DNA of 58,342 nt from Nodosilinea sp. PGN35 (GTDB lineage Bacteria; Cyanobacteriota; Cyanobacteriia; Phormidesmidales; Phormidesmidaceae): contig NZ_JAQKQJ010000001.1 in NCBI RefSeq assembly GCF_029109325.1, positions 1-58,342 of the forward strand, given 5' to 3'. Below the pieces are notes generated by a model, which was not told where the DNA came from, did no database searches, and saw nothing but the letters and a program-made list of their open reading frames with translations. The translations under genes were made by a program, and so were the position numbers. Shown piece after piece: positions 26,465 to 30,752 of this stretch; within the stretch, counting starts at the first letter, position 1; every line of letters starts with the position of its first letter.

Positions 26465-26634
26465 AGGGGTAGGGGGTGGGGAGTAGGGGGTGGGGAGTAG
26501 GGGGTGGGAGGGTAGATGGGTGTAGATGGGTCAAGAGAAGACATCGCCTAAAATTACCCACCCCTCACCCCTCACCCCCTCACCCCTCACCCCCTCACCC
26601 CCTCACCCCCTCACCCCCTCACCCCCCCACCCCT
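26462..26634. repeat. G-rich/C-rich low-complexity inverted repeat
   Basis: The left arm (about 26465-26512) is repeats of GGGGGTGGGGAGTA. The right arm (about 26562-26634) is repeats of CACCCCCT or CACCCCT. The arms are complementary and could form a long hairpin or G-quadruplex-prone structure around a short AT-richer core. The element separates the GT4 gene from the GT2 start. A very similar arrangement sits inside the mutS2 gene at 46129-46287. Confidence 0.8.
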
Positions 26635-27785: not shown

Positions 27786-28220
27786 ATGAAACAGCGACAT
27801 GGAGCGTTTAGTCTATTAGGAGCAGCGGCTATTAGCACGCTGGCGCTACCTGTTTTTGCCAACACTGCCACTCAGCAAACTGGCACACAGTCGGCAACTA
27901 TTAATGGCAGCAATAACCAAGTGATTCAGGTTATTAATCAGGTCAACATTAGCCATCCTGGCCTGGGTCGGGGGCTGGGTAATAACGATCGCCGCACCAC
28001 GGTACAGGGCACTGTGCAGGACAGCTACCAGGGTGCCACTATCGACGGCAATGGCAATAGCGTCTACCAGGAAACCAATCAGATCAATCAGCAGCAGTCG
28101 CCAAACCGTCCGGCACCGGGCCGAGGCAATAGCGCTCGCCACGATGACGACGACAAGCGGGGCCCCGGTCGGGGCCACAATCAGCGCCGGGGGCATGGCC
28201 GCGATCGCGACGACGATTAA
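27786..28220 (+). CDS. Secreted Gly/Asn/Gln repeat protein, paralogue 1
   Basis: I do not recognise a named family. The 144-residue protein has a signal peptide (MKQRHGAFSLLGAAAISTLA..., cleavage after VFA-N near residue 26). Two related repeats follow: INGSNNQVIQVINQVN (about 38-53) and IDGNGNSVYQETNQIN (about 80-95), both fitting GxxNxxxQxxxQ[VI]N. The C-terminal 45 residues are rich in Arg, Asp, Gly and His (GRGNSARHDDDDKRGPGRGH). The repeat rhythm recalls curlin-type beta-strand repeats, but the spacing differs. It is a paralogue of the protein at 28760-29125. A surface or matrix fibre component is a guess. Confidence 0.7.
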   Translation: MKQRHGAFSLLGAAAISTLALPVFANTATQQTGTQSATINGSNNQVIQVINQVNISHPGLGRGLGNNDRRTTVQGTVQDSYQGATIDGNGNSVYQETNQINQQQSPNRPAPGRGNSARHDDDDKRGPGRGHNQRRGHGRDRDDD

Positions 28221-28263
28221 TATCAAATTCGCTTTGGGAAACCCCGATTCAAAACAGAGATCC

Positions 28264-28294
28264 CGTAGGGACATTGCAGTGTAATGCCCCTACG
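28264..28294. repeat. CGTAGGG...CCCTACG hairpin
   Basis: CGTAGGGACATTGCA pairs with TGTAATGCCCCTACG with few mismatches, 44 bp past the stop of the first repeat-protein gene. The core is similar to the palindrome at 50853-50898 (GGGGCAT...ATGCCCC). It could act as a transcript 3' end; no T-run follows. Confidence 0.6.
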
Positions 28295-28410
28295 AGCTTC
28301 TTAATTCAGCCGTCCCAGGGGTTGCGCTGCGCCAAACCAGCTTGAATAGACTGCAAATAGTTAAGCCGATCTACCCGCTGCTGTTTGCTTTTAAGATCTA
28401 AGCTTAAACG

Positions 28411-28502
28411 TAATTAGGTTAAAGCATTCAGCAACCCTAGGAAGGTTCAAACGTTTGAACCTTCCTAGGGGAATTCTCCTGGCCAAGCTGGCTACAACTA
28501 TA
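28411..28502. repeat. AACGTT-type inverted-repeat element, copy 1
   Basis: This is a dispersed element with a perfect 36-bp palindrome at its centre (28435-28470, each arm CCCTAGGAAGGTTCAAAC). It is flanked by GGTTAAAGCATTCAGCAA on the left and GGCCAAGCTGGCTACAACTA on the right. The flanks match copies at 33191, 38153, 49265 and 54284. The left terminal arm is shortened here. Confidence 0.75.
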
Positions 28503-28530
28503 CGCTCAATTTACTCCTGGAATTATCTTT

Positions 28531-28567
28531 AATTCCCGAAGGTTTTTGCGCCTTTGGGAATTTTTGT
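28531..28567 (+). terminator. Terminator-like hairpin upstream of second repeat-protein gene
   Basis: AATTCCCGAAGG (28531-28542) pairs with CCTTTGGGAATT (28551-28562), with one mismatch near the middle, and a T-run follows. It lies about 310 bp past the first repeat-protein gene and could end its transcript. It would separate transcription of the two paralogues. Confidence 0.5.
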
Positions 28568-28759
28568 TGCTCCAGAAAATCACAAAAATTTATTTTTTAT
28601 TTTCCGGAACCTTTGCGTAATTCTACGGGTCATAGGGGTTATGAATCGACAAAATTGAAGGCTGCTTAAGAGGCATAAAAGCTGCTTTTAGAATGGCTTT
28701 TCAAGTAGTCGAATTCATGAGTTCACTCATTTGCACACTTAATTGTTGAGGACGTTTCA

Positions 28760-29125
28760 ATGCTGAAGCACATCTCTACTCTGGGTCTACTGGGTTTTGC
28801 TGCTCTGGGCTTTGTCGCCATGCCCGCCAGCGCTGACACCGCCGTAGTACAGCAGGGCACCCAAGATATCTATATTCAAGGGAGCGGCAATGCTACGGTG
28901 CAGCGTAGCCAGCAGGTCAACCGCGTTGAAACCCGTGGCCCCGCTGGCCGCCGGGTAGAAAGCACGGGCGTTGTGCAAGACATCTATCAGACCGGCACCG
29001 TGTTGGGTGACGACAACGCTGCTTACCAAGAGAGCAACCAGGTCAACATCATTCGCGAAAGCCGTCCCGAAGGCCGAGGCCGGGCTTCCCAGGGCCGGGG
29101 CGCTCGCATCGACATCCGCAAGTAA
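28760..29125 (+). CDS. Secreted Gly/Asn/Gln repeat protein, paralogue 2
   Basis: This 121-residue protein has a signal peptide ending near SADTA (residue 26). Two repeats match those of the protein at 27786-28220: IQGSGNATVQRSQQVN (about 39-54) and LGDDNAAYQESNQVN (about 82-96). Each is preceded by a QQGTQD- or VVQDIYQ-type strand. The tail is basic and Gly/Arg-rich. TGAGGA upstream forms a ribosome site. No database family was recognised by eye. The alternating polar pattern suggests a short beta-solenoid or amyloid-like strand stack outside the cell; this is inference. Confidence 0.7.
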   Translation: MLKHISTLGLLGFAALGFVAMPASADTAVVQQGTQDIYIQGSGNATVQRSQQVNRVETRGPAGRRVESTGVVQDIYQTGTVLGDDNAAYQESNQVNIIRESRPEGRGRASQGRGARIDIRK

Positions 29126-29207
29126 TTGCCTGGGCCGCCGTTTTGCCTAGCGCTGGGCGGGGCGGCGGCCCCACCCTCAACCCACTTGCCATTGCAAGGA
29201 GACAACC

Positions 29208-29549
29208 ATGATGATTTCAACTTTGAAGGTGGGCCTGGTGGGGGCGATCGCCCTCGCGACCCTCACCCCCGCCGCCCTCGCCAGTTCGGTGTCGATCACC
29301 ACCGACCGGGTGCAGCTCCAGGTGGGCAACAGCGGCCAGGTCTACATCCGTACCCTGGCCGACAACGATGGCCTGCTGCCGCGTCCGGCGGCGATCGCCC
29401 CCCAGGCCGACGGCATTTTGCCGCTGCCCAGGGCTAATTTTGCGCCGGGCTGCACTGCGCGATCGCACAGCTCCCACGCCACTCGGTCTACGCCGGGGGG
29501 CAACGTGGTCTACAGCGAAAACCGCAGCACCACGCGGGTGTGCCAGTAG
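29208..29549 (+). CDS. Small secreted protein, unknown family
   Basis: The 113-residue protein follows a strong AAGGAG ribosome site. A signal peptide (MMISTLKVGLVGAIALATLTPAALA in outline) is cleaved near residue 25. The mature part starts SSVSITTDRVQLQVGNSGQVYIRT, a beta-strand-like stretch with Gly/Asn, followed by proline-rich sequence. It has two cysteines, in FAPGCTAR and at the second-last residue, which could form a disulfide. It lies 82 bp behind the second repeat protein and 41 bp before the next secreted protein, so the three may be one transcript. Function unknown. Confidence 0.65.
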   Translation: MMISTLKVGLVGAIALATLTPAALASSVSITTDRVQLQVGNSGQVYIRTLADNDGLLPRPAAIAPQADGILPLPRANFAPGCTARSHSSHATRSTPGGNVVYSENRSTTRVCQ

Positions 29550-29590
29550 AGTCTGGCTCTGTTTCAACTCATCTATACCGTGCCGTAACT

Positions 29591-29962
29591 ATGATTAAAC
29601 CTCAGTACCTTCTGGGGCTCCTCTGTGCTGGGGCCCTAGGGTCGTTCGCCCCAGAGGCCTCGGCCCAGTGTGTGGTCGCCGATGTATCCATTCAGGCGGC
29701 AATTCGCGGCGGCAGCAGACCCGCCGAGCAGGTTAACGACGTGGCCATCGATGCCGAAGGCCCCTGCGTCGGCAACACCAGCGTCAGCACCAACCGCCAA
29801 ATTCAGGTGGGCGGTACTGGCGAGGTGCGCCAGACTCGCCAAAGCCGCCACCAGCTGCGCGGCTCCGGACAGACCGCCGGTTCAGCCTCGGGGCCAACCG
29901 TGGCTGTGCCGGTCAATGTTCAAGTCGATGTGTACAACCCCGCCGAGCGTCTGCGGCGGTAG
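29591..29962 (+). CDS. Small secreted protein, unknown family
   Basis: The ATG at 29591 (MIKPQYLLGLLCAGALG) gives a good signal peptide cleaved near ASA-Q (residue 25); frames upstream lack one. The 123-residue protein has two cysteines in the mature part (QCVVADV and EGPCVGN) and a Gln/Gly/Arg stretch (NRQIQVGGTGEVRQTRQ) that faintly echoes the repeats of the two upstream paralogues. It ends with a beta-like PVNVQVDVYNPAERLRR. It is probably exported with its neighbours; role unknown. Confidence 0.62.
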   Translation: MIKPQYLLGLLCAGALGSFAPEASAQCVVADVSIQAAIRGGSRPAEQVNDVAIDAEGPCVGNTSVSTNRQIQVGGTGEVRQTRQSRHQLRGSGQTAGSASGPTVAVPVNVQVDVYNPAERLRR

Positions 29963-30263
29963 TTCTAGCCGTTGCCCGAACGGTAGGACAGGCTTGGGGC
30001 GATCGCTGTAGGCCAGGGCGCTGCCTCAGTTGCTGCTACCGGTAGTGGCTCATATCCTCAGCGCAGCGGCCATCGCTATATTTCCCAGGAAGGGAACCTG
30101 CTAGCCCGAGACGGTGTCTATCTAGCCTGACTTGGTCAGAGGGTATTAACACCGATTCTTAACGGCGATATCGCTTGTTTCTGGCCGTGCTAACCTTGCC
30201 GGAACGCTGCTGTTACGGCTGGCCCTGGTGCGGCCTTCCCCTATTCCTGGAGATGTCATTGTT
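29963..30263. other. Spacer before the last secreted protein
   Basis: These 301 bp contain no supported gene. The sequence is GC-rich with no clear terminator or repeat, and presumably carries a separate promoter for the gene at 30264. Confidence 0.3.
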
Positions 30264-30752
30264 ATGAACCATTCGTCGGCCCTTGGGGTTGCTCTGTTGA
30301 TTTTGGTGGCGGTTACTGCGGCGGTGGGGCCTTCCTCGGCCAACGGTAACCAGTCGTTTGGGGTCTCCTACCAGGCTCTAAGCGCCATCTTGTCTAAGGC
30401 AAACGCCAAGGATGTTATGGATTCTTACCAACGCCAGACCAATACCATCAGCCTCGATCGCGCCAATCTAGACGAACCCCACCTGCTTTCCGTCAGCGTG
30501 CCGGGGGGCGCATCGCTTCAGGGCTACATAGAAATCGATGGCCACACCCGCGTGCCCCTGGGCACCAGTTCAGAGTTTGTCGATGTCAGCCCCTACCTGA
30601 GCGAGTCAATTACCCGCGTCACCATTGTGGGCAGCTATTCCCCCGCCTCGGCTTCGGTGGCGATCGCCTTCAACGGCCCCAATACGGTGGTGCAGCAGCA
30701 GACCGGCGGCACCGGACGCATCAACTACCAGCTCAATTTGCTGGTGCAGTAG
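30264..30752 (+). CDS. Small secreted protein, unknown family
   Basis: This 162-residue protein starts MNHSSALGVALLILVAVTA, a signal peptide likely cleaved near SSANG (residue 25). The mature part is predicted rich in beta-strands (HLLSVSVPGGASLQGYIEIDG, RVTIVGSYSPASASVAIAFNG) and ends NTVVQQQTGGTGRINYQLNL, whose Gln/Gly/Asn pattern resembles the repeats in the upstream paralogues. No cysteines. It is the last of five + strand secreted-protein genes and faces ComEC convergently with a 12-bp gap. Function is not recognised. Confidence 0.62.
   Translation: MNHSSALGVALLILVAVTAAVGPSSANGNQSFGVSYQALSAILSKANAKDVMDSYQRQTNTISLDRANLDEPHLLSVSVPGGASLQGYIEIDGHTRVPLGTSSEFVDVSPYLSESITRVTIVGSYSPASASVAIAFNGPNTVVQQQTGGTGRINYQLNLLVQ

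What the first reader, a model, noticed from the sequence alone, without database searches (positions are those of the whole stretch)
27786..30752. Run of five small secreted proteins, two built from GxxNxxxQxxxQ[VI]N repeats
Five consecutive + strand genes encode exported proteins of 113-162 residues. Two (27786 and 28760) are paralogues, each with two copies of a Gly/Asn/Gln repeat, for example GSGNATVQRSQQVN and GNGNSVYQETNQIN. The fourth and fifth carry weaker Gln/Gly/Asn stretches. The rhythm resembles curlin-type amyloid repeats, but the spacing between Asn and Gln differs. I recognise no named family. Their place next to a polysaccharide export cluster fits an extracellular matrix or fibre system.
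Basis: partly seen in the sequence, partly recalled or inferred. Interest (0 to 1): 0.75.

Follow-up and report, generated by a model that had tools for sequence, protein, structure and literature searches.

The report
Cyanobacterial curli-like fibre gene cassette
Five neighbouring genes that recur, in whole or in part, across many cyanobacteria encode small, predicted secreted proteins, two of them built from a repeated glutamine- and asparagine-rich pattern that likely stacks into extracellular fibres resembling, but distinct from, the curli amyloid of other bacteria.

Summary
Five + strand genes (P1-P5, 27786-30752) encode proteins of 113-162 residues with signal-peptide-like starts. P1 and P2 are paralogues, each with two 26-residue units: Q-x3-Q-x3-[IV]-x-G-x2-N-x3-Q-x3-Q-x-N. 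No curated family fits. It is a cassette, not a local oddity: the repeat proteins occur in 42 of 388 sampled cyanobacterial genomes (27 of 159 genera), mostly followed by P4, often with P3 and P5, in fixed order and with varying flanks. In 14 loci picked by the repeat protein, P4 stood beside it in 12 and P5 in 11. Predicted inward positions are almost never charged (3 of 294 in that set), outward ones often (101 of 546). This fits a strand-arc-strand (beta-arch) unit like curli's. Curli's Q+9 is absent from every unit examined; N-8 and Q-2 are absent from close units (0 of 152) but occur in some distant ones. CsgG is absent from all 18 carriers tested. Best reading: a cyanobacterial extracellular fibre or matrix system that works like curli or Fap but is neither. 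Fibre formation, secretion and amyloid nature are inferred; the P2 structure model was low-confidence. The polysaccharide neighbours are not conserved.

The parts
27786..28220 (+). P1: predicted exported 144-aa protein, two Gln/Asn units, acidic/Arg-Gly-rich tail
   Evidence: two repeat genes in 20 of 22 close loci, the other two (L048, L056) being cut by contig ends; dN/dS 0.105-0.172
27870..27947 (+). P1 unit 1 (residues 29-54)
28011..28088 (+). P1 unit 2 (residues 76-101)
28531..28562 (+). T-tailed hairpin in the P1-P2 gap, likely terminator; P1 and P2 would then be separate transcription units (inferred)
   Evidence: z -3.35; the consensus scan found 6 terminator-like sites in the region against 3.5 expected; a stem of similar sequence is the longest T-tailed hairpin in 6 of 16 related gaps
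28760..29125 (+). P2: predicted exported 121-aa paralogue of P1, two Gln/Asn units, basic Arg-Gly tail
28844..28921 (+). P2 unit 1 (residues 29-54)
28970..29047 (+). P2 unit 2 (residues 71-96)
29208..29549 (+). P3: predicted exported 113-aa protein with two conserved Cys
   Evidence: (C82 and C112 invariant in 9 sequences)
29591..29962 (+). P4: predicted exported 123-aa protein, the most constant partner, two conserved Cys
   Evidence: (C27 and C59 invariant in 15 sequences)
30264..30752 (+). P5: predicted exported 162-aa protein with a confident Ig-like beta-sandwich domain (about residues 58-161)
   Evidence: (95 of 162 residues with pLDDT >= 90)

Best explanation
The run is a conserved cyanobacterial cassette of small, predicted secreted proteins in which P1 and P2 carry 26-residue Gln/Asn repeat units that are predicted to fold as strand-arc-strand layers and would likely stack, within and between molecules, into an extracellular curli-like fibre. 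Shown: the gene order, the unit, its conservation, the alternation of uncharged and often charged positions, and the frequent company of P3-P5. Inferred: Sec export to the periplasm, then release by an outer-membrane route that is not CsgG. Inferred: outside, the units polymerise with Gln at -10/-6 of one strand facing Gln at +11/+7 of the other across a G-x-x-N arc; P1 and P2 are two subunits of one fibre (as CsgA and CsgB are), their charged Arg/Gly or Asp-rich tails lying on the surface. P3 and P4 (each with a conserved Cys pair, probably a disulfide) and P5 (beta-sandwich) would be accessory parts: cap, anchor, adhesin or periplasmic chaperone. Other lineages add P6 (repeat-like stretch plus a predicted coiled coil) or a four-unit protein with a PEP-CTERM-like tail, which would anchor or seed the fibre.
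For: Unit significance. Over 153 distinct close units, inward positions not used for selection are charged in 4 of 1,071 cells against 356 of 1,989 outward; over 43 distant units 3 of 301 against 124 of 559, the inward set being the lowest of all 77,520 column choices; over 42 distinct units from loci fetched afterwards 3 of 294 against 101 of 546. Q-10 and Q+11 in 152 of 152 close units chosen on G0, N+3, Q-6, Q+7 only. Repeat proteins in 42 of 388 genomes. Order R3<R4<R5<R6 holds in 21 of 21, 9 of 9 and 12 of 12 loci holding at least two of them. P4 beside the repeat protein in 12 of 14 and P5 in 11 of 14 loci picked by the repeat profile. Flanks differ. The P2 model, though weak, places strands at 27-40, 45-56, 68-82 and 87-98, i.e. 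strand-turn-strand twice with GxxN in the turn. Repeat number varies from one to four units and paralogues multiply in tandem. Yardstick: CsgA and FapC rely on Asn/Gln ladders in beta-arches (PMC10192328, PMC12822426; passages).
Against: AlphaFold2 gave P2 only pLDDT 51 and pTM 0.27, with no solved-structure match, although the curli paper reports CsgA models of pLDDT 88-94. Two units per window protein is few for a solenoid. No secretion gene was recognised in the cassette. In the test set 3 of 28 repeat proteins hold no unit by the criterion used, and the 14 loci leave out the weakest hits. P5 occurs without a recognised repeat protein in L078, L079, L080, L084, L115 and L116, and two of these are same-genus genomes that lack P1-P4, so the system is dispensable. 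No expression, localisation, fibre or dye data exist. Signal peptides were judged by eye.
Confidence: 0.52

Rival explanations
1. A non-fibrous beta-structured complex of the cell surface or periplasm: P1-P5 form a discrete assembly (for example in the outer layers, sheath or junctions of the filament), the units pairing once instead of polymerising.
For: Only two units per window protein, low-confidence P2 model, several conserved accessory partners, conserved Cys pairs in P3 and P4.
Against: Unit number varies from one to four and repeat proteins multiply in tandem, which suits a polymer better than a fixed complex; uncharged inward face with repeated Gln.
Confidence: 0.24
2. A very divergent member of the curli system proper (CsgA/CsgB homologues).
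For: Same G-x-x-N arc and same inward phase as curli. Distant cassette proteins in L081 and L083 carry the minimal curli motif QxGxxN three or four times. Q-2 stands in 14 of 43 distant and 21 of 49 later units, N-8 in 8 and 5; N-8, Q-2 and N+3 together in 6 and 3.
Against: Q+9 in 0 of 152, 0 of 43 and 0 of 49 units; the full Q.G..N.....Q in 0 of 20 and 0 of 28 proteins. In the window's own family N-8 and Q-2 are 0 of 152. PF07012 in 0 of 57 genomes and in none of 24 diverse members at E<=1. CsgG in 0 of 18 carriers.
Confidence: 0.09
3. Secreted adhesins or polysaccharide-binding matrix proteins that decorate exopolysaccharide rather than form fibres.
For: Charged Arg/Gly and Asp-rich tails; P5 beta-sandwich; polysaccharide genes upstream in the window and some close relatives.
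Against: Polysaccharide linkage absent in distant cassettes; no carbohydrate-binding family hit.
Confidence: 0.11
4. Secreted effectors or bacteriocin-like small proteins with another role.
For: Small, exported-looking, patchy within the genus.
Against: No defence, phage or other curated family hits; no C39-transporter domain in the 20 neighbouring ORFs scanned.
Confidence: 0.04

Closest known systems
Curli (CsgA/CsgB, exported by CsgG)
   Same: Short imperfect Gln/Asn/Gly repeats, predicted strand-arc-strand unit, X-G-X-X arc followed by N (+3), uncharged inward face; two related subunits side by side (PMC10192328, PMC3521004; passages). Some distant cassette units also have N-8 and Q-2.
   Different: Unit 26 residues with Gln every fourth residue (-10, -6, +7, +11) instead of N-x-psi-x-psi-x-Q twice; Q+9 absent throughout; units separated by 16-21 residue linkers in P2 and P1; no PF07012, no CsgG in the 18 carriers tested; different neighbours.
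Fap (FapB/FapC)
   Same: Imperfect Asn/Gln repeats joined by linkers; conserved synteny (PMC12822426; passages).
   Different: Fap keeps three repeats with a Greek-key fold; here two as a rule, simple arches predicted. Fap accessory genes were not searched for.
EbfG1-4 of Synechococcus elongatus
   Same: Four-gene operon of secreted cyanobacterial proteins, EbfG1-3 forming amyloid (PMC9981879; passages).
   Different: EbfG carry a double-glycine motif and use the C39 peptidase transporter PteB; here Sec-like leaders, and no C39 domain among 20 neighbouring ORFs. Sequences were not compared directly.
Beta-solenoid repeat families (YdcK repeat, pectate-lyase-like adhesive domain)
   Same: Sub-threshold hits of members to such models.
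   Different: All weak (best E 0.005); no family membership.

Membership tests
Curli CsgA/CsgB | Minimal repeat X6QXGX2NX10 | tested here: not met
   QxGx2N absent in 97 of 101 close members and in P1-P5. It does occur in 7 of 20 distant and 11 of 28 later repeat proteins
Curli CsgA/CsgB | Inward ladder N-8, Q-2, N+3, Q+9 around the arc Gly (QX10Q kernel) | tested here: not met
   Close units: N-8 0, Q-2 0, Q+9 0 of 152; N+3 was a selection position. Distant and later units: N-8 8 of 43 and 5 of 49, Q-2 14 and 21, Q+9 0 and 0, the full ladder never
Curli CsgA/CsgB | Curlin repeat profile PF07012 | tested here: not met
   No hit for P1/P2 at E<=10, 0 of 57 genomes with E. coli as working control, not among the 17 families listed for 24 diverse members at E<=1
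Curli system | CsgG secretion pore in the genome | tested here: not met
   PF03783: none in the window's genome; 8 of 57 genomes have it, none of the 18 P2 carriers. Carriers found later outside these 57 were not tested
Curli system | CsgE, CsgF | not tested
   Not searched
Fap system | Three imperfect repeats in the major subunit | tested here: not met
   Two units in P1 and P2; distant and later repeat proteins have none to four, two being commonest
Fap system | FapA, FapD, FapE, FapF genes | not tested
   Not searched
EbfG operon | Double-glycine leader and C39 peptidase transporter | tested here: inconclusive
   No C39 domain among the 20 neighbouring ORFs scanned; leaders read by eye as Sec type; EbfG sequences not fetched
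Functional amyloid in general | Cross-beta fibres made outside the cell | not testable with these tools
   Needs dye binding, microscopy and diffraction

The most novel reading that the evidence does not exclude
Cyanobacteria have their own widespread amyloid-fibre system, separate from curli and Fap: a cassette of Gln/Asn-repeat subunits with a mirror-symmetric Gln ladder, recurrent accessory proteins P3-P6, and export without CsgG, using the same beta-arch principle with a different kernel.
Probability: 0.45. Interest if true: 0.8.

Novelty: new variant of a known kind. Interest (0 to 1): 0.66.

Why it matters
Many filamentous cyanobacteria build mats and biofilms, yet in the passages and listings seen here the only cyanobacterial functional amyloid I met is the EbfG operon of Synechococcus elongatus. 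A cassette that recurs in 27 of 159 sampled genera, with a repeat kernel that obeys the beta-arch rule but with another ladder from curli, would supply candidate structural proteins of many mats, an independent test of what an amyloid kernel needs, and a new exporter to look for.

Tried and rejected

Papers: searches were the searches behind 'not described'. Passages were seen from PMC3521004, PMC9981879, PMC10192328 and PMC12822426; every other paper only as a search listing.

In one search at most 11 candidates per genome were scored, so 42 of 388 may be low. Of the places hit I fetched most, not all: left out were G245, G241 and G197, a second place each in G079, G374 and G355:C1 (all weak). 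L036 and L037 lie on one contig; L134 is the contig of L062. L048, L056 and L125 are cut by contig ends, L045 begins and L044 ends inside the cassette; all stay in the counts. The widened P4 profile (A8) did not complete. One search failed by a script error and was run again.

Full report
What is there. The window comes from a Nodosilinea-like cyanobacterium: the closest named relatives of P2 and P4 are Nodosilinea, Leptolyngbya, Phormidium and Tildeniella records. Five genes lie in line on the + strand, each with a Sec-like leader read by eye. P1 and P2 are 37-43% identical paralogues. Each carries two copies of a 26-residue unit, x-V-Q-x3-Q-x3-[IV]-x-G-x2-N-x3-Q-x3-Q-x-N, scoring above every shuffle. 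The units are separated by 21 residues in P1 and 16 in P2. P3 and P4 each have two conserved Cys. P5 has a confident Ig-like beta-sandwich domain. The five genes look to be under purifying selection (dN/dS 0.025-0.351).

Not a known family. Pfam, NCBIfam, PHROGs and PADLOC gave nothing above a cut-off. The P1/P2 profile found 98 proteins among 5.8 billion, none with a precomputed Pfam domain; their source names are missing or 'hypothetical', apart from three that no domain supports ('Filamentous hemagglutinin', an acetyl-CoA carboxylase component, FlgF). No related chain was found in the Protein Data Bank by sequence.

A cassette, not a local run. Among 22 close loci (L036 and L037 from one contig), 20 have P1-P2-P3-P4 in order on one strand; the other two, L048 and L056, are cut by contig ends. 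P5 follows in 18 of the 20, not in L042 or L046; in L043 it lies in two ORFs and in L044 it runs off the contig. A profile of P5, the far end of the cassette, hit 15 of 242 genomes of the class. Beside several of those hits, in genomes not searched before, stood P1/P2-like proteins. The P1/P2 profile then hit 17 of 242 genomes and a widened one 42 of 388 genomes, 27 of 159 genera, in nine families. As a test outside the training set, 14 loci from 12 genomes were fetched because of that hit and scanned with profiles built before: P4 in 12, P5 in 11, P3 in 7, P6 in 3. One of the 14 (L134) is the contig of the already seen L062, and the weakest hits were not fetched. Over all three sets the order R3-R4-R5-R6 holds in 21 of 21, 9 of 9 and 12 of 12 loci that hold at least two of these partners, on one strand in all but L086, where P6 is on the other strand.

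Exceptions. Of the 21 distant loci 14 have a recognised repeat protein. L078, L079, L084, L115 and L116 have P5 without one; L084 has unrecognised Gln/Asn-rich small proteins beside P5. L080 has a leaderless P4 ORF and P5 behind an unrelated ORF, and no repeat protein was found in that genome. L111 has a repeat protein alone and L113 P6 alone. Same-genus genomes G008 and G011 keep P5 but lack P1-P4. P2 was found in 18 of 57 genomes, so it is patchy even within the genus. Flanking genes differ between lineages; the adjoining glycosyltransferase was found in 6 of 18 related loci and ComEC in 10 of 18, so the link to the polysaccharide cluster is local.

The unit as a beta-arch. Counted from the invariant Gly of the window's family, Gln sits at -10, -6, +7 and +11 and Asn at +3 (and mostly +13). 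Positions -10/+11, -6/+7 and -2/+3 are mirror images about the arc. Even positions before the Gly and odd positions after it are nearly free of charge: 4 of 1,071 cells in 153 close units, 3 of 301 in 43 distant units, 3 of 294 in 42 distinct units fetched later; the other positions carry charge in 356 of 1,989, 124 of 559 and 101 of 546 (positions used to pick units left out). In the distant set the inward columns are the least charged of all 77,520 ways to choose them. The sequences are related, so these cells are not independent, and 3 of the 28 later repeat proteins gave no unit by the criterion. The pattern is what a strand-arc-strand unit with a buried face would give. AlphaFold2 places strands on both sides of each GxxN, but at pLDDT 51, so this is support in outline only.

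Comparison with curli. The curli unit is N-x-psi-x-psi-x-Q, X-G-X-X, N-x-psi-x-psi-x-Q (PMC10192328, passages). On the same ruler that is N-8, Q-2, N+3, Q+9. In the window's family N-8, Q-2 and Q+9 occur in 0 of 152 units, Q-10 and Q+11 in all, I/V-2 in 151. Farther away it is less clear-cut: Q-2 stands in 14 of 43 distant and 21 of 49 later units, N-8 in 8 and 5, both together in 6 and 3, so that some distant proteins contain the minimal curli motif; but Q+9 is 0 of 43 and 0 of 49, while Q-10, Q-6, Q+7 and Q+11 remain in most. So the arc and the inward phase are shared and the ladder differs, with intermediates. The curlin profile finds nothing in 57 genomes, and CsgG is missing from the window's genome and from all 18 P2 carriers, while 8 of 57 have it. 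With these numbers zero overlap has a 4% chance, so the point is absence, not avoidance. Carriers outside these 57 were not tested for CsgG.

Extra parts elsewhere. P6 in other lineages has a short Gln/Asn stretch, in L108 with one nearly complete unit, then amphipathic strands and a long coiled-coil-like stretch (judged by eye). In L123 the cassette ends with a 368-residue protein with four units and a VPEP-plus-hydrophobic tail that resembles a PEP-CTERM sorting signal but scores below the curated cut-offs (17.7 against 20.7 and 13 against 16 bits). Both would suit anchors or seeds at the cell surface, which is inference.

Mechanism. The most likely reading is an extracellular fibre or matrix system: P1 and P2 exported, kept from assembling in the periplasm by partners, released by an unknown pore, and stacked outside. 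Chance of a polymer outside the cell: about one in two. Next most likely is a discrete surface complex. Membership of curli fails the tested features in the window's family. The recurrence of the cassette and the charge pattern are firm; secretion, polymerisation and amyloid nature are not shown.

Known context. Passages of four papers were seen. Amyloid formation in a cyanobacterium was described there for EbfG1-3 (PMC9981879), which use a double-glycine motif and a C39 transporter. Surveys of curli and Fap (PMC3521004, PMC12822426) name other phyla in the passages seen; the word cyanobacteria does not occur in PMC12822426 and only in a sample name in PMC3521004. Eight literature searches listed no paper whose title or abstract start describes this cassette; the library lacks most subscription journals.

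Noticed in passing
window 28435-28470: A perfect 36-base palindrome in the P1-P2 gap; it is a dispersed element, found at four places in the window's genome at up to 2 mismatches. No pair of CCTAGG was found in 16 related gaps.
   Followed up: yes
window 26476-26630: The ORF of the upstream glycosyltransferase begins with about 50 low-complexity Pro/Ser/His residues; relatives align only from residue 45-55 on, so the true start is probably downstream.
   Followed up: partly
L078 (G011) and L079 (G008): Two same-genus genomes have P5 between the same glycosyltransferase and ComEC-like genes, but P1-P4 are cleanly absent.
   Followed up: partly
L036 and L037 (one contig, G016:C376): The whole cassette appears twice in inverted orientation on one contig with the same lengths and scores: a real inverted duplication or an assembly artefact.
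   Followed up: no
L131 8867-10815: Four further tandem paralogues of 115-118 residues upstream of a cassette repeat protein, with a G-x-G-N-x-T-G-Q rhythm; the repeat subunits seem to multiply locally.
   Followed up: no
L125 8854-9885: Three near-identical repeat-protein genes in tandem at a contig end.
   Followed up: no
L123 11010-12116: 368-residue protein with four units and a sub-threshold PEP-CTERM-like tail at the end of the cassette.
   Followed up: partly
L043, L047, L062 (P1 homologues): P1 homologues end in runs of 13 to 19 Asp, suggesting a cation- or polymer-binding tail.
   Followed up: no
L084 7899-9023: Gln/Asn-rich small exported-looking proteins beside a P5 homologue that the profiles do not recognise; perhaps still more divergent repeat subunits.
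   Followed up: no
L081 12376 and L083 11434 onward: A divergently transcribed ORF resembling a Ser/Thr protein kinase (by eye) flanks two distant cassettes.
   Followed up: no
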